The notes under the pieces were generated by a model that saw only the letters and a list, made by a program, of their open reading frames with translations, was not told the origin of the DNA and made no database searches. From Actinomadura citrea (GTDB lineage Bacteria > Actinomycetota > Actinomycetes > Streptosporangiales > Streptosporangiaceae), in assembly GCF_013409045.1 (NCBI RefSeq), contig NZ_JACCBT010000001.1, positions 186,001-250,000 on the forward strand: DNA of 64,000 bases, written 5' to 3'. The translations under genes and the position numbers were made by a program. Positions 4,252-14,966 of this stretch are shown here, one piece after another. The number at the start of each line of letters is the position of its first letter. Within the stretch, counting starts at the first letter, position 1.

Positions 4252-5535
4252 TCAGTAGTGGAACGCGGAGGTCACCCTCGCGCCCTTCGTGCCGAGGTTG
4301 ACGACCGACGCCCCGCCGGACGGGACGGCCCGGCAGAACGCGCCGCCGTAGCCGTCCGGGAAGACGAAGAGGCCCCACACGCCCAGCCAGTCCTCGACCG
4401 CGCCGGTCTCCGCGTTGAGCATCGGCTCCCCGGCGGGGACGACGCGGCGCTGGACGATGTAGTCCTCCTTCAGGCACTCGGCGACCGTCTCGGCCCACTC
4501 GCGGTCGGTCTGGTCCCAGCCCACACGGATGCCTCTCCCCGACAGGCCCGCGACGGGCTTGAGGATCAGGTCGTCCCGTTCGGCGCGGACCCGGTCGGCC
4601 AGGTCGGGGGTGAGGGTCCGCGTCCACGGCAGAATGCGGTCGATCAGGGCGTTCTCGTCCGGCGACAGCTCCGCGCGCATGTCGGGATCGGAGACGAGCG
4701 GCAGGCAGCTCTTGTAGGAGAACATGGACGCCGTCAGGGGAGTCCACAGGACGACCTTGCCCTCCTCATAGGCGCGCATGACGGCCTCGACGGGCTTGTC
4801 GTTCCGCGGGTCCCGCGCCACCTGGTGGGCGGAGAAGTACCGCAGGACGAGGTCGAGCGGACGGTCGTGCAGGTACAGCCGCCCGTCCTTCTCCTGCACC
4901 TGGTCCACTTCTCCGATGAGCAGCTCGATGCCGTACCGCTTCATCGACTCCTGGAAGGAACGGTGCAGCGACTCGTAGGCCGCCATCCCGTCGACGGCCT
5001 CAAGCGTGGCGACGACGGGCGCCTCCTTCTGCGTGGCCTCGACGAACTGCCGCGCGATGGCCGCCGGAGTGTCGACGGTGGACAGGCCGTGCTCGTCGGC
5101 GAACGCGGCGAACTCCTTGTTCGCCAGCAGGCAGCGGTTGGCCTCGCTCATGTCGACGCCGCCCAGCTCGCTGCCGATGTTGAACTCCAGCAGCCGGAAG
5201 CGCGAGCCGTCGTCGTAGAGATCGGCCCGCCCGTACAGGATCGGCTCCGCGTCGAACCGCGTCATGAGGTCGGTGCGGCGCGCGTCCGCGCCGACCGCGG
5301 CGCAGAACCTGCGGCGGTCGCCGTCGAACAGCCGGTCGGGCAGGGCCGTCATCAGCCGGAACAGCCCGGCCAGGTCGTCGGCCGCCTGGCGCGTCCGCGC
5401 CTCGGACGAGAACAGCGGCCGCGTCGCCAGGTACCTGCCCCACGCCTCGGCGAACACGGGCGGGTACTCGGCCTCCGCCATGGCGTCGCGCAGGGGCCCC
5501 TCGCCGGCCGCCGCCATGTACTTCGCGGTGACCAT
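4252..5535 (-). CDS. Circularly permuted ATP-grasp family protein (glutathionylspermidine-synthase-like)
   Basis: 427 residues. RLLEFNIGSELGGVDMSEAN (about 115–135) resembles the pre-ATP-grasp/metal-binding part, and DDLILKPVAGLSGRGIRVGWD near residue 345 is the ATP-binding glycine-rich stretch. The order fits circularly permuted ATP-grasp proteins (CP_ATPgrasp / glutathionylspermidine synthase type), which ligate carboxylates to amines or thiols. The start overlaps the upstream stop by one base (TGATG), so translation is coupled. Last gene of the 14966→4252 operon and probably an amide-forming step. Substrate unknown. Confidence 0.75.
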   Translation of the reverse strand: MVTAKYMAAAGEGPLRDAMAEAEYPPVFAEAWGRYLATRPLFSSEARTRQAADDLAGLFRLMTALPDRLFDGDRRRFCAAVGADARRTDLMTRFDAEPILYGRADLYDDGSRFRLLEFNIGSELGGVDMSEANRCLLANKEFAAFADEHGLSTVDTPAAIARQFVEATQKEAPVVATLEAVDGMAAYESLHRSFQESMKRYGIELLIGEVDQVQEKDGRLYLHDRPLDLVLRYFSAHQVARDPRNDKPVEAVMRAYEEGKVVLWTPLTASMFSYKSCLPLVSDPDMRAELSPDENALIDRILPWTRTLTPDLADRVRAERDDLILKPVAGLSGRGIRVGWDQTDREWAETVAECLKEDYIVQRRVVPAGEPMLNAETGAVEDWLGVWGLFVFPDGYGGAFCRAVPSGGASVVNLGTKGARVTSAFHY

Positions 5536-6800
5536 CAGCCGGTTTCCTCCACGTCGACGATCAGGTCCTTCTCGACCTTGCGGATGGCCTCGCGGTCGGC
5601 GTAGATCTGCTCCGGGTCCTCGTGGGCGAGGATGATGTAGCCCATCGTCATGCTGGCGAACAGGTCCGTGCTGGCGTCGACGCGGTCCCCGGTGCGCACC
5701 ACGTGCACCGGGGAGTGGTAGCTGGGCAGGTCGCGCGCCTGATCGTAGATCTCGGCGTTGCGCACGATCCCCGTGGAGTGCGACATGAGGAACACGGCCA
5801 TGACATTGCGGCGCAGGGTGTAGCCGGGCGGCATCTGCGGGCCGAGGCCGCGGCACACGTCCACGATCCTCGTGACCTGGCTCTCTCCGGTGGCGATCTC
5901 GGTCACCGCGGGGTTGCCCGCTCCGGCCAGCCGCGCGTTGACCTCCAGCAGGCGCGGCCCGTCCGGGGTCATCATGATCTCGGTGTGCGCCGCCCAGTTG
6001 CGCAGCCCCACCGCGTCCAGCGCGGCGAGCCCGTAGTCGATCAGCTCGCCGTAGGCGCCCGTGTCGTAGGGGAGCCACTCCACGTAGTCGTACACGGCGA
6101 TGCCCTCGCCGAACGGCACCCGCCGGTACTTGATCATGTCGGTGATCGAATGCCGGCCGTCGTGGCTGACGGTGTCGATGGCGTACTCGGTACCGGTCAT
6201 CAACTCCTGGACGAGGACCTCCTCGGCCAGCACGTCGAGCTTGTCGCGGGTGCCGAGCATCGCCGTGAACAGCTCGCGCCAGCCCTGCCCGCCGGGAGCG
6301 CGGCTGACCCCGACCGTGCCGGCGCTCGTCGGCGGCTTGACGACGAGGTCCTTGCCGGCGAGCCCCTCGCGCTCGATCCAGGCGGCGACCTCGTCGGGGT
6401 CGGTCGTGGAGATCTGCCGGGGGACGGGCAGCCCCGCTTCGGCGAGAGCCTGGTGCATGAGGTACTTGTGCCGCCGAGCGTCGACCCTCTCCGGATCGTT
6501 GGAGAACTCCGGCGCGAGGGCGTCCGAGCACTCCTGCGCGAGCCGCAGCGCCGCCTCGACCCCGGGAATGACGGCGATCGGGTTCAACGCGCCGAGCCGG
6601 GCGATCGTCTCCGCCATGTCGCCGTGATGGTTGATGACCGCGTCGTAGTTGCCGGGGTCGTGCGAGGAGTGCAGCGGGGCGAGCGCGGGCCCCGTGTAGT
6701 CCATCACGGCCACCGGGCTGAACCCCGCCTCCCGGAGCGCGGGAGCGACCATCGCCGCCGAGGTGAAGGGCCGCACGATTGCGACGACTGGCTTGTCCAT
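5535..6800 (-). CDS. ATP-grasp domain ligase (first of two classical copies)
   Basis: 421 residues starting MDKPVVAIVRPFTS. AGAAGGTGA about 6 nt before 6800 picks this ATG over an upstream in-frame candidate at 6875. ATP-grasp hallmarks are KDLVVKPPTSAGTVGVSRA (phosphate-binding loop), QELMTGTEYAID and the metal-binding ending EIMMTPDGPRLLEVNARLAGAG. Such enzymes activate a carboxylate as acyl phosphate and join it to an amine, often an amino acid. It follows the MFS gene by 88 nt and is coupled to the next ATP-grasp gene. Substrate unknown; probable amide-bond step in the cluster. Confidence 0.8.
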   Translation of the reverse strand: MDKPVVAIVRPFTSAAMVAPALREAGFSPVAVMDYTGPALAPLHSSHDPGNYDAVINHHGDMAETIARLGALNPIAVIPGVEAALRLAQECSDALAPEFSNDPERVDARRHKYLMHQALAEAGLPVPRQISTTDPDEVAAWIEREGLAGKDLVVKPPTSAGTVGVSRAPGGQGWRELFTAMLGTRDKLDVLAEEVLVQELMTGTEYAIDTVSHDGRHSITDMIKYRRVPFGEGIAVYDYVEWLPYDTGAYGELIDYGLAALDAVGLRNWAAHTEIMMTPDGPRLLEVNARLAGAGNPAVTEIATGESQVTRIVDVCRGLGPQMPPGYTLRRNVMAVFLMSHSTGIVRNAEIYDQARDLPSYHSPVHVVRTGDRVDASTDLFASMTMGYIILAHEDPEQIYADREAIRKVEKDLIVDVEETG

Positions 6801-6888
6801 GGTGGTCACCTTCTGTTTCGTTCCGTTCGTTGTGCGGTGCCCGTCCTTCCGGGCGCGGCCGCCGGCGTAGGTCACGTGCCGTCTCGCC

Positions 6889-8145
6889 TCAATCGCCGCC
6901 CTCGGCCGCCGTGGCCGGCTCCAGGGCGGGCTCGGGCTCGTCCGCCGGCCGCCGCCGCGCCAGCCCGGCGCCGGCGCCGACGGCCGCGGCGCCCACGAGG
7001 CCGAACACCCCGGTCAGGACCCAGACGCCCGAACCCCACGCGTGCCACGCCGCGACACCGATCATGGGGCCGACGGCGTAGCCGACCTGCTGCGGGATCG
7101 TCGCCGCCGCGATGTATCGGGCGCGCAGCGCGGCCGGCGCGACGAGGCCGGGGTAGGCCATCATGGACGGCGCCGCGATGACCTCCCCGAACGTCCACAC
7201 GACCGTCGCGAGGAGGAGCAGCGCGACGGGCGTCGGTCCGGTGTAGATCAGATGGCCGACGCCCAGCATCGCCATGCCGAACGTCATCGGCACCCCGATC
7301 GGCAGCCGCTGGAGCCACTTGGACAGCAGCACCTCGAAGGCGATGACGATGCCCCCGTTGACGGACAGCAGCATCGCGAACACCCGCTCGTCGTGACCCG
7401 AGCCCGTCACGAACAGCGGCAGGGCGGCCGACGACTGGATGTAGGTCACCGCGGTGAGGAAGAGGCCGAGCACCACGAGCATGAACCGCCGGTCGGCCAG
7501 CACCTGCCCGTAGCCGGCGCGCTCCCCGCCGGATCCGCCGCCACCGGGCGCGGGCTCGGCGTCCGACCGCAGCGCCACGTAGGCGACCACGCCGAACGCC
7601 AGCGACGTCGCCGCGTCCACGTAGAACAGCGCGCCGTAGGACGCGTAGGTCAGCAGCAGTGCGGCGCCCATCGGGCCGACCGTCGAGCCGACGTTGAACG
7701 TCAGCCGCAGCACCGAGAAGACCATCACGTGCCGGTCCTTGGGCGTGAGCTCGACGACCCACGCCATCGCCGCCGGGCGGTACGCCGTCGCGGTCAGACC
7801 CGCTCCCCCGGCGACGAGGGCGCCGATCCACACGTTCGGCACGTGCACGAGGGCCGCGGTGAGCGCCGCCGTGCCCGCCATCGAGCCGACGATGACCCAG
7901 CGGTACCCGACCCGGTCCGCGGCGGCGCCGCCCACCGCGGACCCGGAGATCCGGCCGACCATGAGCGCGGTCAGCACGACGCCGCTCTCCCACGCGGTGA
8001 AGCCCTCGCCGGTCAGGAACAGCACGAGGAACGCGTTGAGGAACGCCGCCAGGTTGCTGATCAGGTTGCCGAGGACCAGGATCCGGACGGTCCCGCTCAT
8101 CTCGCGCAGCGTGGCGAGAATCGTCGGGTGCTCCGCGGACTTCAT
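6889..8145 (-). CDS. MFS transporter, likely product exporter of the cluster
   Basis: 418 residues with about 12 hydrophobic helices. The conserved loop 2-3 region of MFS drug-export type reads GRISGSAVGGAAADRVGYRW. The start (MKSAEHPTILATLREMSG) forms an ATGA overlap with the upstream ATP-grasp gene, so it belongs to the same operon. Placement inside a biosynthetic operon suggests export of the product or self-resistance. Specificity cannot be read from sequence. Confidence 0.85.
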   Translation of the reverse strand: MKSAEHPTILATLREMSGTVRILVLGNLISNLAAFLNAFLVLFLTGEGFTAWESGVVLTALMVGRISGSAVGGAAADRVGYRWVIVGSMAGTAALTAALVHVPNVWIGALVAGGAGLTATAYRPAAMAWVVELTPKDRHVMVFSVLRLTFNVGSTVGPMGAALLLTYASYGALFYVDAATSLAFGVVAYVALRSDAEPAPGGGGSGGERAGYGQVLADRRFMLVVLGLFLTAVTYIQSSAALPLFVTGSGHDERVFAMLLSVNGGIVIAFEVLLSKWLQRLPIGVPMTFGMAMLGVGHLIYTGPTPVALLLLATVVWTFGEVIAAPSMMAYPGLVAPAALRARYIAAATIPQQVGYAVGPMIGVAAWHAWGSGVWVLTGVFGLVGAAAVGAGAGLARRRPADEPEPALEPATAAEGGD

Positions 8146-9410
8146 GGCGCCTGCTCCAGCGGGGTGCCCTCGAAGGTGAAGAACCGCCCGGCGTCCGGTA
8201 TGGCGGCGCGGGTCTGGGCCGGCGTCTCCCCGACCGCGATCACGTAGCCGGAGCGGGCCAGCCCGTGCGGTGGCAGCCGCACCCGCGCGCCCGGTTGCGT
8301 GCCGAGTTCGACCTCGGCGACCGGCGGGCGCATCAGCTCCTTGTGCGCGGTCGCCGACGTGATCTCCATGTCGAACGGGGGATAGGCGAACCGGATGGAC
8401 GCGGCCCTGCGGGGCCCCGGGAACCGCGGGGCCGGGCGGCGTCCCACCGCCACGTCCGCCGCCGCGAGCGGCCCGTCGACGCCGGAGGTCAGCAGCCCGA
8501 GGTAGGGGATCATCCCGCCGCCCAGCCGGACGTTGATCTCGATGACGTGCCTCGCGCCGTCCGGGGTCAGCTTGAACTCGATGTGCGTGAACCCGTCGGT
8601 GAACCCGACGGCGGCGTGCACGCCGGTCAGCGTGTCGCGGAAGTCCGCGTCCGAGAGCAGCGGGTCGTTGGCGTCGACGTCGTGGCCGATCTCCTCGAAC
8701 GCCAGATCGCCGCTGCCGCCGAGCACCTTGCGCGCCACGATCAGCGGCGTGCACTCCCCCTGGAACAGGACGCACTCGACGGAGATCTCCGGGCCGTCGA
8801 GGAACTCCTCCACGACCACGTAGTCCTCGAACTGGCGGATGCCGCCCATCCGCGTCCCGTCGGTGAGCGCGAACGCGGCGTCCAGGTCCTCCGGCCTCTC
8901 GACCTTGCTGAGGCCGAGGCTGCCGCCGAGGTTGCGCGGCTTGACGATGATCGGGTAGCCGATCTCGCCGGCGAACGCGCGCGCCTCCTCCAGCGAGGCC
9001 ACGGCGCGGGACGCGGGCTGCGGGAACCCGGCGTCCCGCAGCGCCTCCCGCGTCGCGGACTTGTCCCGGCACCGCGCCACCGCGCCCGGGTCGAGGACGG
9101 GGAACCCGAGCGCCGCGCTGAGGTGCGCGGACGTCTCGATGTAGACCTCGTCGTAGCAGAACACGCCGGCGACCTCGTGGTCGCGGGCGACCTCGCGGGC
9201 CGCCGCCGTCAGCTTGTCCAGGTCGAGGCAGTCGACGACGGTGTGTCCGTCGATGTAGGGCTCCTCCCAGCTCGCCGGGGACGGGTTGAGCAGCCAGAGC
9301 CGGTACCGCTGCGACACCGACTCCAGGATGTACTTGCGGTAGACCCAGTAGCTGCTCGCGACCAGGAGAAGGAGCGGACGCTCGCCGCCCGCGGGCGGGT
9401 CATACGACAT
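8142..9410 (-). CDS. ATP-grasp domain ligase (second classical copy)
   Basis: 422 residues, MSYDPPAGGERPLLLLVASS at the N terminus. ATP-grasp motifs: YPIIVKPRNLGGSLGLSKV, VVEEFLDGPEISVE and IEFKLTPDGARHVIEINVRL, the last giving the usual Glu/Asn metal ligands. It resembles L-amino-acid ligases and carboxylate–amine ligases of natural-product pathways. It is only distantly similar to the copy at 5535–6800, so each may add a different unit. It starts 22 nt after the amidinotransferase stop and overlaps the MFS start by 4 nt. Confidence 0.8.
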   Translation of the reverse strand: MSYDPPAGGERPLLLLVASSYWVYRKYILESVSQRYRLWLLNPSPASWEEPYIDGHTVVDCLDLDKLTAAAREVARDHEVAGVFCYDEVYIETSAHLSAALGFPVLDPGAVARCRDKSATREALRDAGFPQPASRAVASLEEARAFAGEIGYPIIVKPRNLGGSLGLSKVERPEDLDAAFALTDGTRMGGIRQFEDYVVVEEFLDGPEISVECVLFQGECTPLIVARKVLGGSGDLAFEEIGHDVDANDPLLSDADFRDTLTGVHAAVGFTDGFTHIEFKLTPDGARHVIEINVRLGGGMIPYLGLLTSGVDGPLAAADVAVGRRPAPRFPGPRRAASIRFAYPPFDMEITSATAHKELMRPPVAEVELGTQPGARVRLPPHGLARSGYVIAVGETPAQTRAAIPDAGRFFTFEGTPLEQAP

Positions 9411-9431
9411 ACGGACCTCGATCGCAGGTTG

Positions 9432-10550
9432 TCAGGAGAAGTAGTCCTCGGGCCCGCCGCGGCGGCGGACGTCGAGGGTGGCGCAGTGGAAGCCGCCGCC
9501 GAAGGTGTTGACCGTGCGGAACGGGACGGGGACGGGGGTGAACCCCTCCTTCTCCAGCAGCCGCAGCAGGTCGGTCTCCTGCGCCTCGACGAAGATCCGG
9601 TCCTGGTCGAGCATCAGGGTGTTCATCGCGATCCACCGGCTGCAGAAGTACATCGTCTGGTCGGCGGGGATGGCGGGCTCCGGGCAGATCAGCACGTCCC
9701 AGTCGGCGAACATCTCCGGCAGTTCCGGCACCCGCTCGGGGTTGATCAGTACCCGGCCGGGACGCAGCGGGACGAACGTGGCGTTCATGTGCATCGGGTG
9801 GTCGTCGGCGAACGCGACCTCGTGCACCCGGAACTCGCCGCCGAGCAGCCGCCGCACCCACTCGATGCCGAACCGGTTGGTGACGTGGCTGCGCTGGACG
9901 AGGATGTCGCGGCCGAACCGCATGAAGTCGCCCGCGTCCACGATCGGCTCGAACTCGGTGATGACGGAGGTGGCGTCGGGGAACGGGTCGTCCAGGGACA
10001 TGGCCTCCGGCTTGGCCGCGGCGTAGCCGGGGTTGAAGGACGCGTCGGTGAGCTGCGGCTTCGGCGCCGCGACCCAGCGGGCGCCGCGCCGGAAGTAGTC
10101 CTTGAAGATCGTCCGGAACGGGTGGGTGGCGAAGTAGTACGACCGCCAGCCCATCGTCGCCTCGACGATCTGGTCGCCGGCGACCAGGGCGATGTCGCGG
10201 GGGAAGGTGTGCGACGAGCCGCCGGTGGACGTCCAGTCGGCGGTCCCGAACGGTCGGGACTGGTCGACCGGGTCGGGGCGCCGGACCGTCACGCCCTCGC
10301 CCTCCAGGATCGACACGAACCCTTCGAGCTCCTCGCGGGCCGCCTCGACCTGGTCCTCCGGGAAGCCGCCGCCGCCGTTGCGGCGGTAGAAGTCCCACGC
10401 CTCGGGCGGCACGGTCGCCTCGATCGCCGGATGCCACGGCGGGACGGCGGCGCCGTCGACGACGCCGACGATCACCTCTTCCAGCGGGTCCCACTCGTTG
10501 TACGAGCCGACCGGGGCGGGCTGCCCGGCCGACGGCGCGTTCTCGGTCAT
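9432..10550 (-). CDS. Arginine:X amidinotransferase (AGAT-like)
   Basis: 372 residues. The catalytic triad of glycine/inosamine amidinotransferases is complete: Asp205 in EPIVDAGDFMR, His254 in PMHMNATF and Cys356 in GGGFHCATLDVRRRG. These enzymes move an amidino group from L-arginine via a Cys-amidino intermediate to an amine acceptor. In this operon the donor could be free arginine or an N-methylated/N-hydroxylated arginine made by the neighbours; that is inference. The start overlaps the upstream stop (ATGA). The Asn following the His motif (animal AGAT has Asp there) may alter specificity. Confidence 0.85.
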   Translation of the reverse strand: MTENAPSAGQPAPVGSYNEWDPLEEVIVGVVDGAAVPPWHPAIEATVPPEAWDFYRRNGGGGFPEDQVEAAREELEGFVSILEGEGVTVRRPDPVDQSRPFGTADWTSTGGSSHTFPRDIALVAGDQIVEATMGWRSYYFATHPFRTIFKDYFRRGARWVAAPKPQLTDASFNPGYAAAKPEAMSLDDPFPDATSVITEFEPIVDAGDFMRFGRDILVQRSHVTNRFGIEWVRRLLGGEFRVHEVAFADDHPMHMNATFVPLRPGRVLINPERVPELPEMFADWDVLICPEPAIPADQTMYFCSRWIAMNTLMLDQDRIFVEAQETDLLRLLEKEGFTPVPVPFRTVNTFGGGFHCATLDVRRRGGPEDYFS

Positions 10551-12016
10551 CGCGACGTCCTCTCGACGGTTCGAACGGTCACCCGGGCCTCGGGCGAGGC
10601 GGCCTTCAGGCCGTGCAGGCGGCCGCGCGGCACCAGCAGCACGTCGCCGGTGCCGAGCCGGTGCGGGTGGTCGGTCGCCCACGCGTACACGTCCGCCTCG
10701 CCGCTCGTGACCTCCACGAGCCGGTCGGAGTCGTACACGCCGGTACAGAACGGGCTGTCCGGACGGAGCGTGCTCGACTCGGCGTCGTCCATCGCGGAGG
10801 ACGCCAGCGCGGCGCCCGCCTCGGTGTACCGGTCGAGGCCGTCGGCCCAGGCGATCTGCGCGCGGAAGTCGGCGTCGCCGAGGCGCAGCAGCAGCTTGGT
10901 GTCCTCGATGCCGCGCACCAGCTCGGGGATGACGAGCTCGCCGTGCGTGCGGGCCAGGCCGAGCAGCAGGTTCTCGTAGGTCATCCGCCCGTGGTGGACG
11001 TCGATGTGCGCGTGCTCGTCGCAGTACTTGGCGTCCACGCGGTCGCCGTAGACGGCGCGGAGCATGGCGCCGGTGTCGGCGAACCCCTGCGCGAACAGCC
11101 ACTCCAGGTACGTCACCGCGGCCATGTAGCGGAACATGCCGCGGTGGTCCTCGGTGAGCCAGTTGAAGTAGTTCACCCCGACCAGGGAGCTGGTCAGGTA
11201 GAAGTTCCAGTAGGCGTGCAGGTCGGTGCGCAGCCCGACGCTGGCCAGCATCTCCTTGAAGATCGTGCTGTGCTTGGCGCCGTAGAGCCCGTACCCGAAC
11301 TCGTCGTTGAAGATCTTGAAGAGCTCGGACTGCTCGACGCCGTAGGAGCCGCCGAGGTTGCGCGCCATCGCCGACGCCTCGGTCAGCGCGTCCAGGGCGA
11401 GCTGGACGAGGTGCAGCGCCGCGGCCTCCTCCGGCCGCCGGCACTCGGTGATCAGCCGCATGGTCCCGGTCACCTCGGCCGCCGCGTCCACCGCCGGGTT
11501 GCTCCCGGACGCGTCCGCGGGCGCTCCGGCCCCGCCGACCTCGGCGAGGAAGTACGCCTGCAGCTCCTCCAGGGTCCGCACCGGCGGGACGGCGACGGCG
11601 TCGTCCAGGAAGGAGAAGGCGTACCGTTCCAGGCCCGGCCGGACGGCGTCGCGCAGCGCCCGTACCTCGTCGCCGTAGAAGAGCGCGAAGTCGTCCTTCG
11701 CCGAGGCCAGCCCGGCGGGCGGCAGCAGGATCATGTCGCTCTCGTAGGCGTTGCACAGCACGCGGCCGGCGACGAGCTGCCCGCTGCCGAGGAACTCGGC
11801 CTCCGTCGCCGGGACGGAGAAGTCCCGGTCGCCGGCGCCGGGCGGGCCGATCGGGCGCCGGAACGGGTTGCCCTCGATGAGGACCTCGGGCCCCGGCCGG
11901 AAGATCCGCTGCGAGCAGTACGCGGCGAGGGCGCTCGCCGCGGCCGCCGTCGGCGCCGCACCCGTCGTCACCATGCCCGTCGCCGGTGCGCCGATCGCCT
12001 CGGTAACGGTCGTCAT
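10547..12016 (-). CDS. SznF-like heme-oxygenase-fold diiron oxygenase with C-terminal cupin remnant (copy 2)
   Basis: 489 residues: N-terminal helical region, central HDO domain (about 185–375) and a C-terminal cupin-like region (about 415–485). Diiron ligands are Glu213, Glu239, His249, Glu305, His335, Asp339 and His342; spacings of 26, 10, 56, 30, 4 and 3 are identical to those I recall for SznF, which N-hydroxylates Nω-methyl-arginine. The cupin part keeps GDVLLVPRGRLHG (His468) but the first strand (CTGVYDSDRLVEV) has no H-x-H; a displaced H450-P-H452 sits in the next turn. AGGAGGTGG precedes the ATG. Overlaps both neighbours by ATGA junctions. Confidence 0.85.
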   Translation of the reverse strand: MTTVTEAIGAPATGMVTTGAAPTAAAASALAAYCSQRIFRPGPEVLIEGNPFRRPIGPPGAGDRDFSVPATEAEFLGSGQLVAGRVLCNAYESDMILLPPAGLASAKDDFALFYGDEVRALRDAVRPGLERYAFSFLDDAVAVPPVRTLEELQAYFLAEVGGAGAPADASGSNPAVDAAAEVTGTMRLITECRRPEEAAALHLVQLALDALTEASAMARNLGGSYGVEQSELFKIFNDEFGYGLYGAKHSTIFKEMLASVGLRTDLHAYWNFYLTSSLVGVNYFNWLTEDHRGMFRYMAAVTYLEWLFAQGFADTGAMLRAVYGDRVDAKYCDEHAHIDVHHGRMTYENLLLGLARTHGELVIPELVRGIEDTKLLLRLGDADFRAQIAWADGLDRYTEAGAALASSAMDDAESSTLRPDSPFCTGVYDSDRLVEVTSGEADVYAWATDHPHRLGTGDVLLVPRGRLHGLKAASPEARVTVRTVERTSR

Positions 12017-13098
12017 GCGACCACCTCCTCGGACTCGACCTCGAAGCGGACGCACTCGCCGTCGTGGGCGGCGACCAGTGACACCGGCAGGTCCGGCTGG
12101 ACGTGCAGCGGGACGGGCAGGCACTGGATCGCCTGCTTCCAGTGCGAGTCATGGCCGGGCGCGTTGTCGACGACGATCCCCGGCAGCAGTTCCATCTCGA
12201 ACCAGAACGCGACCGCGTGCATCTTGCCCGCGGCCGTCGGCTGGACCGTCAGCTCGGTGCGCTGGGGCCGCGCGTCCGCGGTGTAGAAGTCGAACTCGAA
12301 CACCGTCATCGGCTCCGACAGCGTCCGGTGCTCGTGCCGGTGCAGCCGGGAGTCGAAGTACTCCAGCGTGGACAGCCGGTTGAAGGGCGCGAGGTCGAAC
12401 CCGTAGAGCTTGCCGACGTGGTTCTTGCGGTGCAGCGGCTCGCTCTCGATGAGCTGCGCGATGATCCGTCCCCGCGACGGCATGATCGTCGCGTCCGGGG
12501 CGAGGAGATGCTCGCGGGCGTGCGCGATCGTGCCGAGGATGCCCTCGCCGAGCAGCCCGCAGTCGACGATCTCGGTGACCAGCAGGCCGGCGCGCCTCGG
12601 CAGGTCCCCGGGCACCGTCATGCGGGTGGACATCTTCGACACGACGCCGACCGCGTCGTCGTACCCGGCCACCCGGACCACCCGCGCCGCCGTCTCGGCG
12701 ACGGACGGCTGGCCCTCGCAGGCCACGACCTCGCGCGCCCCGGCCCGCGCCGCCATCATCGCCAGCAGGCCCGACCCGGCGCCGATGTCGAGGACCAGCG
12801 CCTCCGGTGCGGACGCCACCGCCTGCCGGATCGCCCTGTCGTACAGCTCGGCGCGCTCCTCGTCGTGCAGCATCTCCCAGTGCCAGCGGGGGACGGAGCG
12901 CCGGACGGCCCGGTTCCGGCCGATCAGGGCCTCCTGGTTGTCGGCGTCCATGCCGAGGATCAGTTCGAAGGCCCGGGCCGCGTCCTCGTAGCGGCCCTGG
13001 TGGTGCAGGTCGCGCCCCCACCTGAGGAACTCGCCGAGCTCCATTCCGTCACGGATCCCGGCGACCGCGCTCTGCGTCTGCGGCTGTGCGCTGTTCAT
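12013..13098 (-). CDS. PRMT9/SznE-like arginine N-methyltransferase with N-terminal TPR
   Basis: 361 residues. One TPR-like helix pair lies at about 23–60 (LHHQGRYEDAARAFELILGM). Then comes the PRMT signature VPRWHWEMLHDEERAELYDRAI, SAM motif I DIGAGSG (104–110), acidic Glu128, double-E loop glutamates 176 and 185 (TEIVDCGLLGEGIL) and a SHW loop at 318–320 equivalent to THW. The RIIAQLIES segment matches PRMT7/9. PRMT-type SznE makes Nω-methyl-L-arginine as the SznF substrate in streptozotocin synthesis, so free arginine is the likely substrate here. Coupled to the Rieske gene and the HDO gene by 4-nt overlaps. Confidence 0.85.
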   Translation of the reverse strand: MNSAQPQTQSAVAGIRDGMELGEFLRWGRDLHHQGRYEDAARAFELILGMDADNQEALIGRNRAVRRSVPRWHWEMLHDEERAELYDRAIRQAVASAPEALVLDIGAGSGLLAMMAARAGAREVVACEGQPSVAETAARVVRVAGYDDAVGVVSKMSTRMTVPGDLPRRAGLLVTEIVDCGLLGEGILGTIAHAREHLLAPDATIMPSRGRIIAQLIESEPLHRKNHVGKLYGFDLAPFNRLSTLEYFDSRLHRHEHRTLSEPMTVFEFDFYTADARPQRTELTVQPTAAGKMHAVAFWFEMELLPGIVVDNAPGHDSHWKQAIQCLPVPLHVQPDLPVSLVAAHDGECVRFEVESEEVVA

Positions 13099-13457
13099 CG
13101 GCTCTCGGCCCCTTCGTCGTGGGTCGGATCGGGCGGCAGGTTGGCGAGGATCTCCTTGTGGATGACCGAGACGGGGGCGCCCGTCTCCGGAAGGACGACG
13201 ACGGCCTCGTCCCCGCTGCGCACCATCGGCAGGCAGGAGCGCTTCACGGCGGAGACGCCGACCTTGGTGCCGTGCCACGGGCAGCTGAGCCGCCGCCCGT
13301 CGGGGGTGCGGCGGGCCAGGCTGAGCGGGCCGCCGCGGTGCGGGCAGTGGTCGCGGACGAGCAGCGACCGCTCGCCCTCGTGCAGGACGAAATAGCGGTC
13401 GTGGCCGACCATCACGGTGTTGTGCCGGCTCAGATCCATCACGATGACGCGGGCCAT
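13095..13457 (-). CDS. Rieske [2Fe-2S] protein
   Basis: 120 residues; Cys38-x-His40 (CPHRGG) and Cys59-x2-His62 (CPWHGT) are the four Rieske ligands. It is a stand-alone Rieske-type ferredoxin with no oxygenase domain. The start at 13457 is chosen for GAGGAG just upstream. In the operon it lies between the two SznF-like genes, so it may deliver electrons to their diiron centres, which otherwise need an outside reductant. That role is inference. Overlaps the methyltransferase by 4 nt. Confidence 0.85.
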   Translation of the reverse strand: MARVIVMDLSRHNTVMVGHDRYFVLHEGERSLLVRDHCPHRGGPLSLARRTPDGRRLSCPWHGTKVGVSAVKRSCLPMVRSGDEAVVVLPETGAPVSVIHKEILANLPPDPTHDEGAESR

Positions 13458-13574
13458 CGGCTCCTCTTGTCTTCGGGCGCGGCCGGTGACGGGCGGGGGC
13501 GGCACTGGGCATGGCGCTGTCAGGCGGGGCGGGAGAGACGGGAGTCTCGGTGGGAGCGTCGGGGGTGGGGAGTG

Positions 13575-14966
13575 TCAGGCGGGAGAAACGGCGTGCAGCA
13601 GGCAGGCGGTCTCCGGCGTCGCCGGCCGGATCCCGTAGAGGCGTCCGCCGGGGATCAGCACGGCCTCGCCGCGCGCCAGCCGCTCGGGCGGTCCGGTGGG
13701 GGTCGTGACGAGGTCGGCCTCACCGTGCTCCACCTCCAGGACGACGTCGCCGTCGTGGCTGCGCGTGCCGAACGGGCTCTCGGCGGTCAGCGCGACGCGC
13801 TGCGGCGGTTCGGATCCGGTCCGCGCCGAACCGGCGAGCTCCCGGTGCCGGGGGAGGCCGTCCGACCAGCGGATCTGCGCCGCGGTGTCGTCCTCGAACC
13901 AGCCGCCGACGAGCCGCGCCTCCGCGATGCCGCGCAGGAGCTCGGGGACGACCCGCGGGCCGTGCCGCCCGGCCAGGGCCAGCAGCACCTGGTCCCGGGT
14001 GATGCGCCCGTGGTGCTCGTCGATGTGCGCGTGCTCGTCGCAGTAATGCAGATCGACGGTGTCCCCGAATATGCTGCGGAAGACTTTGATCATTTCCACG
14101 AATGCGGGCGCGAAAACAGCCTCCGCATAAGTGACGGCGCCCGCGTAGCGGAAGAACTTCGCATGGTCGCGGGACAGGTAGTAATAGTAGTTGTTCGTCG
14201 CCAGCGGCCCGGCCAGGTAGAAGTTCCAGTACGCGTGCACATGGGTCGCCATCGCGCGGCTGCGCAGCATTTTGGCGAAGATCGTGGTGTGCTTGGCGTC
14301 GTAGACCCCGTAGCCGAATTCATCGATGAAGATCTTGAACAGGGCGGACTGCTCGGGGCCGTAGGCGCCGGCGAGGTTGCGCGACATGGCGGAGGCCTCG
14401 GTGAGCCCGTCCAGCGCGAGTTGCACCAGGTAGAGGTCGGCGGCGCTCTTGCGGTCGCGGGCGTCGGCGATGGCGGTCAGCGCGGGCGACGGCCCGGCGG
14501 CGGCCTCCTCCACGACGTGCTGGAAGTAGGCCTCCAGCACCTCGGGCGTGGCGGCGCCGCTGACGTCCACGGCATCGTCCAGACAGCCGAACGCGAAACG
14601 TTCCAGTTCCGAGACCGAGGTCTCCCGGAGTTCTTTGAGGTCGCGCCCGTAGAAGAGGTCGAAATCCTCGTACAGGCCGTCGAGCCCCTGCTCGGGGAGC
14701 AGCACCGTCTCGGCCTCGTAGAAGGTCCCGAGCAGCCGGTGTGCGGCGAGGGAGCGATGGGTCGCCCAGTCGCCGGGGCCCGGCGGGCGGTCGAAGTCGG
14801 ACTCGGCCAGCGAGCCGGGCACGAGCATGCGGCGGTAGGGGTTGCGGCCGTGGACGACCTGGGCGTCACCGCGGAACAGCGGATGGCCGGCGAACGCCAG
14901 GATCCGCTTTCCGAGGGTGCCGCCGGCGTGTGTGGCGGCAGGAGCCGCCTGCGGTTGAACTGTCAT
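13575..14966 (-). CDS. SznF-like heme-oxygenase-fold diiron oxygenase with degenerate cupin (copy 1)
   Basis: 463 residues, close to SznF length. Diiron ligands Glu190, Glu216, His226, Glu282, His312, Asp316, His319 fall one residue from the SznF positions I remember (189, 215, 225, 281, 311, 315, 318). The C-terminal cupin region keeps one His in strand 1 (His404 in TRSHDGD) and has Tyr444 where motif 2 normally has His (GEAVLIPGGRLYG). Thus N-hydroxylation looks possible, but the three-His iron site used by SznF for rearrangement is not intact. First gene of the operon; 117 nt separate it from the Rieske gene. No strong ribosome site is visible. Confidence 0.85.
   Translation of the reverse strand: MTVQPQAAPAATHAGGTLGKRILAFAGHPLFRGDAQVVHGRNPYRRMLVPGSLAESDFDRPPGPGDWATHRSLAAHRLLGTFYEAETVLLPEQGLDGLYEDFDLFYGRDLKELRETSVSELERFAFGCLDDAVDVSGAATPEVLEAYFQHVVEEAAAGPSPALTAIADARDRKSAADLYLVQLALDGLTEASAMSRNLAGAYGPEQSALFKIFIDEFGYGVYDAKHTTIFAKMLRSRAMATHVHAYWNFYLAGPLATNNYYYYLSRDHAKFFRYAGAVTYAEAVFAPAFVEMIKVFRSIFGDTVDLHYCDEHAHIDEHHGRITRDQVLLALAGRHGPRVVPELLRGIAEARLVGGWFEDDTAAQIRWSDGLPRHRELAGSARTGSEPPQRVALTAESPFGTRSHDGDVVLEVEHGEADLVTTPTGPPERLARGEAVLIPGGRLYGIRPATPETACLLHAVSPA

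What the first reader, a model, noticed from the sequence alone, without database searches (positions are those of the whole stretch)
4252..14966. Streptozotocin-like arginine-oxidising gene cluster with new tailoring genes
Nine leftward genes are nearly all joined by 1–4-nt overlaps. They combine a PRMT/SznE-like arginine methyltransferase, two SznF-like diiron N-oxygenases, a Rieske protein, an amidinotransferase, three ATP-grasp proteins and an MFS exporter. SznE and SznF convert arginine to an N-nitrosourea in streptozotocin synthesis (established). The presence of two SznF-like proteins with altered cupins, plus an amidinotransferase and a Rieske protein, suggests a different N–O or guanidine-derived product (inference).
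Basis: partly seen in the sequence, partly recalled or inferred. Interest (0 to 1): 0.93.

Follow-up and report, generated by a model that had tools for sequence, protein, structure and literature searches.

The report
Twin arginine N-oxygenase cluster, nitrosation lost
This actinobacterial gene cluster carries two relatives of the enzyme that builds the anticancer drug streptozotocin; both keep the iron-binding residues of its oxygen-activating site but lack two of the three histidines needed to form the drug's N-N bond, so the cluster likely makes a different, N-hydroxylated arginine-derived small peptide.

Summary
The nine-gene operon is real. Both SznF-like proteins match SznF over nearly their full length (E 5e-95 and 2e-85) and keep 7 of 7 diiron ligands. 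Each has lost two of three cupin histidines. None of the 120 listed homologues has His at position 407. They belong to a cupin-dead actinobacterial clade, the mirror image of ChmM-type proteins, which keep the cupin and lose the diiron site. Distinctive are the tandem oxygenase pair, the dead cupins and an AGAT-family amidinotransferase with Asn where human AGAT has Asp305 (50 of 50 close rows; Asp in 90 of 91 distant rows). I infer that the pathway methylates arginine, N-hydroxylates it with Rieske-supplied electrons, skips nitrosation, and builds the product into a small peptide for export. The product and the amidinotransferase's role are unproven. Verdict: a new variant of a known kind. 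The comparison also offers a candidate electron donor for SznF itself.

The parts
13575..14966 (-). HDO1: SznF-like diiron (heme-oxygenase-like) protein, 463 aa, predicted N-oxygenase
   Evidence: PDB SznF E 5e-95; 7/7 diiron ligands; AF2 pLDDT 83, Foldseek best SznF 6vzy TM 0.88
13614..13787 (-). degenerate cupin of HDO1: R402/H404/Y444 in place of SznF H407/H409/H448
13095..13457 (-). Rieske [2Fe-2S] protein, 120 aa, predicted electron donor to HDO1/HDO2
   Evidence: Pfam PF00355 E 2e-7; CPHRGG...CPWH motif; found beside live diiron HDOs and not beside dead ones
12013..13098 (-). SznE-like (PRMT7-like) arginine methyltransferase, 361 aa
   Evidence: PDB PRMT7 E 9e-51; 40-43% identical to the methyltransferases beside SznF in L039 and L043; E-x8-E pair at residues 176-185
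10547..12016 (-). HDO2: second SznF-like diiron protein, 489 aa
   Evidence: PDB SznF E 2e-85; 7/7 diiron ligands; 46% identical to HDO1
10574..10756 (-). degenerate cupin of HDO2: G426/Y428/H468 in place of SznF H407/H409/H448
9432..10550 (-). AGAT-family amidinotransferase, 372 aa, catalytic Asp/His/Cys kept
   Evidence: PDB human AGAT E 1e-108, HsvA, SxtG; residues
9783..9785 (-). codon (AAC) for Asn256 of the amidinotransferase, equivalent to Asp305 of human AGAT
   Evidence: Asn in 50/50 close rows, Asp in 90/91 distant rows; position checked
8142..9410 (-). ATP-grasp A (amino-acid-ligase-like), 422 aa
   Evidence: PF13535 E 8e-16; PDB L-amino acid ligase 3vot E 8e-20
6889..8145 (-). MFS transporter, 418 aa, predicted exporter
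   Evidence: PF07690 E 4e-36
5535..6800 (-). ATP-grasp B (DdaF/L-amino-acid-ligase-like), 421 aa; shared with szn-type clusters
   Evidence: NF005543 above cut-off; PDB L-amino acid ligase 30vh E 2.5e-43; 17/17 szn-type loci
4252..5535 (-). ATP-grasp C, glutathione/glutathionylspermidine-synthetase-like fold, 427 aa
   Evidence: weak Pfam only; AF2 pLDDT 91; Foldseek glutathione synthetase E 1e-17, TM 0.66

Best explanation
The operon encodes an SznE-like methyltransferase, two SznF-like proteins that keep all seven diiron ligands but lack two of the three cupin histidines, a Rieske protein, an AGAT-family protein, three ATP-grasp proteins and an MFS protein, and it likely makes an N-hydroxylated N-omega-methylarginine that is predicted to be built into a small peptide and exported, without an N-nitroso group. 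Predicted steps: (1) the methyltransferase makes N-omega-methylarginine. (2) HDO1 and HDO2 hydroxylate guanidine nitrogens (SznF's own HDO domain does N-delta, then N-omega), possibly one nitrogen each, with electrons from the Rieske protein. (3) Because neither cupin can assemble SznF's 3-His iron site, the pathway stops at the hydroxylated guanidine, as SznF cupin-His variants do. (4) The amidinotransferase, whose amidino pocket is changed, acts on this modified guanidine, most likely transferring the substituted amidino group to another amine. (5) ATP-grasp ligases attach amino acids and the MFS exports the product. Shown here: gene content, ligand conservation, synteny, phylogeny. Inferred: every reaction.
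For: Ligands: 7/7 diiron ligands in HDO1, HDO2 and the 120 listed homologues (of 219 found); His407 in none of them, all three cupin His in none. SznF with H407, H409 and H448 substituted accumulates the dihydroxy intermediate (review PMC11705231, passages). Class A, szn-type: 17 rows, HHH cupin, each with Rieske, methyltransferase and ATP-grasp B. Class B, diiron-dead, HHH: 13 rows (11 genomes), none with a detected Rieske or methyltransferase. Class C, diiron-live, cupin not HHH: Rieske in 49 of 53 rows. So Rieske and methyltransferase go with the diiron site. Of the 48 class C rows placed on the tree, 45 form one actinobacterial clade (SH-aLRT 99). Three single-HDO class C loci are HDO, Rieske, methyltransferase and amino-acid permease, which suits a free modified amino acid as the core product. 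AGAT-family Asp305 is Asn in 50/50 close rows; human AGAT, HsvA and SxtG have Asp. A dedicated redox partner for another HDO is known (MboB, PMC13185094, section 8).
Against: No metabolite or assay exists. The cupin fold is kept and still constrained (pairwise dN/dS 0.26-0.50 in three comparisons), so it may do something. Non-canonical metal binding cannot be excluded. The Asn argument rests on a recalled role of Asp305; 10 of 10 dimethylargininase-family proteins that I fetched (13 scored over the family's cut-off) keep His-x-Asp, so enzymes annotated for methylated arginine need not lose it. The amidinotransferase is absent from 3 of 21 distinct pair loci, so it is not essential to the core. 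Four of 53 class C rows lacked a detected Rieske: L006 and L025 near contig ends, and both L017 rows, where HDO1 is broken and one search does find a Rieske. Seven of the 13 class B rows had at most about 1.5 kb of flank; L064, L065 and L067 keep three of the seven diiron ligands. The methyltransferase shows nearly the same distribution as the Rieske, so the electron-donor link is correlative.
Confidence: 0.6

Rival explanations
1. The amidinotransferase uses ordinary arginine to cap glycine or another amine (as in pseudouridimycin biosynthesis) and an ATP-grasp ligase joins this guanidino acid to the N-hydroxylated methylarginine.
For: Amidinotransferase plus ATP-grasp ligases plus an N-hydroxylase occur together in the pseudouridimycin (pum/sap) cluster (PMC6586884, passages); catalytic Asp254/His303/Cys407 kept.
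Against: Asp305 is Asn in 50/50 close rows while 90/91 distant rows and AGAT, HsvA and SxtG have Asp, which suggests a changed amidino group.
Confidence: 0.22
2. The AGAT-like protein is a hydrolase (deiminase) that cleaves the modified guanidine of the amino acid or peptide, not a transferase.
For: MboE in mangotoxin biosynthesis, a putative amidinotransferase, deiminates an arginine tripeptide in an HDO plus ATP-grasp cluster (PMC13185094, section 8).
Against: Nothing that I saw in the sequence specifically favours hydrolysis; the solved relatives found by sequence are transferases.
Confidence: 0.15
3. The cupins still make an N-nitroso group through non-canonical ligands, or across an HDO1-HDO2 heterodimer, so the product is an N-nitrosourea after all.
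For: The cupin strands are present in the HDO1 model and the region is still under constraint; the window's two paralogues keep different single histidines.
Against: Substitutions of H407, H409 and H448 in SznF stop product formation (PMC11705231, passages); His407 is gone in 122 of 122 sequences (HDO1, HDO2 and 120 listed homologues) and its replacements vary (R, G, V, D and others).
Confidence: 0.1
4. The Rieske protein has no electron-transfer role for the HDO and is only co-inherited with the methyltransferase.
For: Methyltransferase and Rieske show the same presence pattern in nearly all loci, so their partners cannot be separated fully.
Against: L062 has HDO plus Rieske without a detected methyltransferase; HDO turnover needs outside electrons (recalled), and another HDO has a dedicated 2Fe-2S partner.
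Confidence: 0.2

Closest known systems
SznF/StzF and the szn (streptozotocin) cluster
   Same: SznE-like methyltransferase, SznF homologue with 7/7 diiron ligands, adjacent Rieske, B-type ATP-grasp, as seen in 17 szn-type loci
   Different: two SznF paralogues, cupin His sites lost, an amidinotransferase (0/17 szn-type loci)
ChmM (chalkophomycin) type SznF homologues
   Same: one half of SznF decayed
   Different: the opposite half: most of that group lack many HDO ligands and keep the cupin (PMC11177257, section 5); ChmM works in an NRPS/PKS cluster with a heme N-oxygenase (passages)
Mangotoxin mbo cluster (MboA HDO, MboB redox partner, MboC/D ATP-grasp, MboE AGAT-like)
   Same: HDO with a dedicated 2Fe-2S redox protein, ATP-grasp ligases and an AGAT-like enzyme acting on arginine
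   Different: MboA is a peptide acetylenase; MboB is a flavin/2Fe-2S reductase, and the word Rieske does not occur in that paper's main text; no methyltransferase described in the passages read
Human AGAT, HsvA, SxtG amidinotransferases
   Same: sequence family and catalytic Asp/His/Cys
   Different: Asn at the Asp305 position
Pseudouridimycin (pum/sap) cluster
   Same: amidinotransferase plus two ATP-grasp carboxylate-amine ligases plus an N-hydroxylase (passages)
   Different: flavin N-hydroxylase, nucleoside scaffold, no SznE/SznF homologues in the gene table seen

Membership tests
szn-type N-nitrosourea cluster | SznE-like arginine methyltransferase next to SznF homologue | tested here: met
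   (SznE itself was not at hand; compared with methyltransferases beside SznF in szn-type loci)
szn-type N-nitrosourea cluster | complete diiron site (E189, E215, H225, E281, H311, D315, H318; six of these named, E189 recalled) | tested here: met
   HDO1 and HDO2
szn-type N-nitrosourea cluster | 3-His cupin iron site (H407, H409, H448) that forms the N-N bond | tested here: not met
   R/H/Y and G/Y/H; so it is not filed as a nitrosourea cluster
szn-type N-nitrosourea cluster | Rieske and B-type ATP-grasp genes (observed in 17/17 szn-type loci here) | tested here: met
szn-type N-nitrosourea cluster | genes proposed for glycosylation (SznH, SznJ, SznK) | not tested
   their sequences were not at hand
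SznF-like 3-His/4-carboxylate HDO N-oxygenase | fold and full ligand set | tested here: met
   (model for HDO1 only)
SznF-like 3-His/4-carboxylate HDO N-oxygenase | N-hydroxylation of N-omega-methylarginine | not testable with these tools
   needs enzyme assay
ChmM-type cupin-only homologue | diiron ligands lost, cupin 3-His kept | tested here: not met
AGAT-type amidinotransferase | catalytic Asp254/His303/Cys407 | tested here: met
   catalytic roles from PMC3684758, passage
AGAT-type amidinotransferase | Asp305 (recalled as binding the amidino group) | tested here: not met
   Asn in the window and in 50/50 close rows
Rieske protein | C-x-H ... C-x-x-H cluster ligands | tested here: met
   51 of 51 rows including the window

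The most novel reading that the evidence does not exclude
The cluster runs a guanidine relay: two cupin-dead SznF paralogues N-hydroxylate N-methylarginine with electrons from a dedicated Rieske ferredoxin, and an AGAT-family enzyme with a remodelled pocket (Asp305 to Asn) then moves the N-hydroxy-N'-methyl-amidino group onto a different amine, releasing (N5-hydroxy)ornithine and giving a peptide with an N-hydroxyguanidine on a non-arginine scaffold: a modified-amidino transferase.
Probability: 0.2. Interest if true: 0.85.

Novelty: new variant of a known kind. Interest (0 to 1): 0.66.

Why it matters
SznF is a two-engine enzyme: a diiron site that oxidises arginine's guanidine and a cupin that rearranges it into an N-nitroso group. 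Homologues that keep only the cupin were known (chalkophomycin). This family appears to run the diiron half alone, as a tandem pair found in 22 of 65 same-genus genomes, so it would make hydroxyguanidines, not nitrosoureas. The same comparison offers a direct candidate, the adjacent Rieske protein, for the physiological electron donor of SznF-type enzymes; no such assignment appeared in the papers searched. Both points can be tested with four soluble proteins.

Tried and rejected
Rejected: 'the Rieske protein marks cupin loss'. My first locus scan suggested it, but a more sensitive HMM scan found Rieske genes in all 17 szn-type loci too. Rejected: 'Rieske, ATP-grasp and MFS are new tailoring genes', for the same reason. 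Weakened: using dimethylargininases to argue that Asp305 is lost whenever the guanidine is methylated; 10 of 10 fetched proteins of that family keep His-x-Asp. One search picked wrong reading frames and was replaced. NCBIfam gave no family for HDO1, HDO2, the Rieske protein and ATP-grasp C. The phylum search with L045's HDO (1 of 396 genomes, the window's own) added nothing. The original szn papers that I tried are not held, so whether they named the Rieske gene is unknown to me.
Full report
WHAT IS THERE. Nine - strand genes from 14966 down to 4252: HDO1 (13575-14966), Rieske (13095-13457), methyltransferase (12013-13098), HDO2 (10547-12016), amidinotransferase (9432-10550), ATP-grasp A (8142-9410), MFS (6889-8145), ATP-grasp B (5535-6800) and ATP-grasp C (4252-5535). 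Five of the eight junctions overlap by 1-4 nt; the rest are gaps of 117, 21 and 88 nt. The window lies in a 9.0-Mb single-contig genome in which a search with HDO2 found only these two SznF-like genes. The genus is Actinomadura, judged by the nearest named loci.

FAMILIES. HDO1 and HDO2 align with SznF over nearly the whole length (E 5e-95, 2e-85) and are 46% identical to each other. An AlphaFold model of HDO1 (pLDDT 83) matches SznF 6vzy with TM 0.88 over 456 columns; HDO2 was not modelled. The methyltransferase is PRMT7-like with an E-x8-E pair and is 40-43% identical to the methyltransferases beside SznF in L043 and L039. The Rieske protein has the full C-x-H/C-x-x-H set. The amidinotransferase is AGAT-like (E 1e-108). 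ATP-grasp A and B resemble L-amino-acid ligases. ATP-grasp C, nearly invisible to Pfam, has a glutathione/glutathionylspermidine-synthetase fold (pLDDT 91; Foldseek E 1e-17, TM 0.66).

THE CENTRAL RESULT: DIIRON KEPT, CUPIN LOST. Using SznF numbering, HDO1, HDO2 and the 120 listed homologues (of 219 at E<=1e-20) keep E189, E215, H225, E281, H311, D315 and H318. None has His407 and none has all three cupin histidines. In SznF, substitutions of H407, H409 and H448 led to accumulation of the dihydroxylated intermediate with no product (PMC11705231, passages). The 2024 survey of 426 SznF homologues describes, in the section I read, the converse: a group in which all but one lack many HDO ligands and keep the cupin histidines (PMC11177257, section 5). 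Its Figure 1D covers ligand diversity and may include sequences like these; figures are not held, so I cannot say that they were overlooked.

THREE CLASSES. I scanned the fetched loci for the nine families and read both metal sites (six duplicate loci left out; recount). Class A (diiron live, cupin HHH; szn-type): 17 rows, each with Rieske, methyltransferase and ATP-grasp B; 7 with ATP-grasp A, 5 with a clear MFS match (a sixth is a 26-bit hit; the Pfam scan shows an MFS in L059 that my model missed), 2 with ATP-grasp C, 0 with the amidinotransferase. Class B (diiron dead, cupin HHH): 13 rows from 11 genomes (L031/L041 and L033/L042 are the same genes), none with a detected Rieske or methyltransferase. 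The strong part is six rows with longer flanks (L041, L042, L064-L067; L041 ends 0.7 kb past the gene). Three class B rows (L064, L065, L067) keep H311, D315 and H318 but not the other four ligands. Class C (diiron live, cupin not HHH): 53 rows, 49 with Rieske; of the four misses, L006 and L025 lie near contig edges and two are in L017, whose HDO1 is broken, whose cupin cannot be read, and where tblastn does see a Rieske. L051 repeats L015, so two class C rows are duplicates. One further row (L048) is a fragment. All 51 Rieske rows have the cluster motif (some rows repeat a locus). A tree of the region without the cupin (77 rows; L006, L017, L024, L025, L048 and duplicates left out; quick method, SH-aLRT only, long-branch warnings) puts 45 of its 48 class C rows in one branch (99): HDO1 clade 21, HDO2 clade 21, a single-HDO clade 3. 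The other three are L062 (Y-H-H), inside class A, and the two Acidobacteria rows, which branch apart, so cupin ligands were lost more than once.

WHAT THE RIESKE PROTEIN PROBABLY DOES. It follows the live diiron site across two classes and was not found where that site is dead, so I infer that it feeds electrons to the HDO. Precedent: MboA, another HDO, needs the flavin/2Fe-2S partner MboB, described in 2026 as possibly the first characterised dedicated pair (PMC13185094, section 8). The word Rieske occurs 0 times in the main text of the two N-N papers searched and only in unrelated contexts in the HDO review; the listings showed no paper linking it to SznF. That SznF's natural reductant is unknown is recalled. 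The methyltransferase has nearly the same distribution, so the link is correlative.

VARIANTS TELL THE CORE FROM THE TRIMMINGS. Pair loci: 22 rows including the window, 21 distinct; the amidinotransferase in 18 of the 21, absent from A. harenae (L018), A. rupiterrae (L020) and Dactylosporangium (L022). L007, L009, L012 and L015 lack a detected ATP-grasp C and have a 40-42% identical ATP-grasp A. All nine genes were detected in 11 fetched loci plus the window. Three single-HDO class C loci (L045, L046, L063) have HDO, Rieske and methyltransferase and, directly after the methyltransferase, an amino-acid permease: the simplest reading is manufacture and export of a free hydroxylated methylarginine. 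In Acidobacteria L026 the module sits beside an NRPS and ABC transporters. Distribution: 26 of 65 same-genus genomes have a match, 22 of them the pair; 33 of 345 in the order.

THE AMIDINOTRANSFERASE. Catalytic Asp254/His303/Cys407 are kept, but the position of Asp305 is Asn in 41/41 rows at >=70% identity and 9/9 at 58-70%, against Asp in 90/91 rows below 58% (rows are the best 120 of 4570 proteins plus the window and fetched loci, not deduplicated). AGAT, HsvA and SxtG have Asp. A changed amidino group, that is the methylated and hydroxylated one, is my preferred reading. Against it: 10 of 10 fetched dimethylargininase-family proteins keep the Asp, and an AGAT-like protein can turn out to be a deiminase (MboE).

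SELECTION. Pairwise dN/dS against three close relatives is 0.14-0.31 for the diiron parts and 0.26-0.50 for the cupins (simple counting method, no test): the cupins are constrained but appear looser.

JUDGEMENT. Works like: the first half of streptozotocin assembly (methylation and N-hydroxylation). Is not: an N-nitrosourea cluster, because the defining cupin site was tested and not met. The product is unknown; an HDO survey reports at least 25 unique HDO plus ATP-grasp clusters (PMC13185094, passage), so this neighbourhood type may already be listed there without characterisation.

Noticed in passing
L045:5033-9187, L046:5745-9873, L063:8558-12941: Four-gene cassettes: cupin-dead HDO, Rieske, methyltransferase, amino-acid permease; candidates for minimal producers of a free N-hydroxylated methylarginine.
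   Followed up: partly
L028:9803-16193: Pseudomonas salomonii has an SznF-like protein with both metal sites intact, a Rieske-like gene, a methyltransferase and an ATP-grasp gene: a szn-type locus outside Actinomycetota.
   Followed up: partly
L026:4416-16639: Acidobacteria MAG: cupin-changed HDO, Rieske and methyltransferase beside an NRPS and two ABC transporters; E215 is Asp here and in L027.
   Followed up: partly
L062:9136-10895: SznF-like protein with Tyr at position 407 and a Rieske gene but no detected methyltransferase, branching inside the szn-type group.
   Followed up: no
L017:10001-12001: HDO1 is broken in this UNVERIFIED_ORG Actinomadura viridilutea record (real or sequencing error); left as found.
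   Followed up: no
window:15492-16475: DJ-1/AraC-type regulator (FtrA-like, just under the NCBIfam cut-off) upstream on the same strand, found by tblastn in 7 of 26 fetched loci; it may be a chromosomal neighbour and not the cluster's regulator.
   Followed up: no
window:603-3062: Genes that look like cydAB (cytochrome bd, named by eye, no family search) lie past the cluster, and relatives of one or both also occur in L007, L009, L012, L014, L024 and L025.
   Followed up: no
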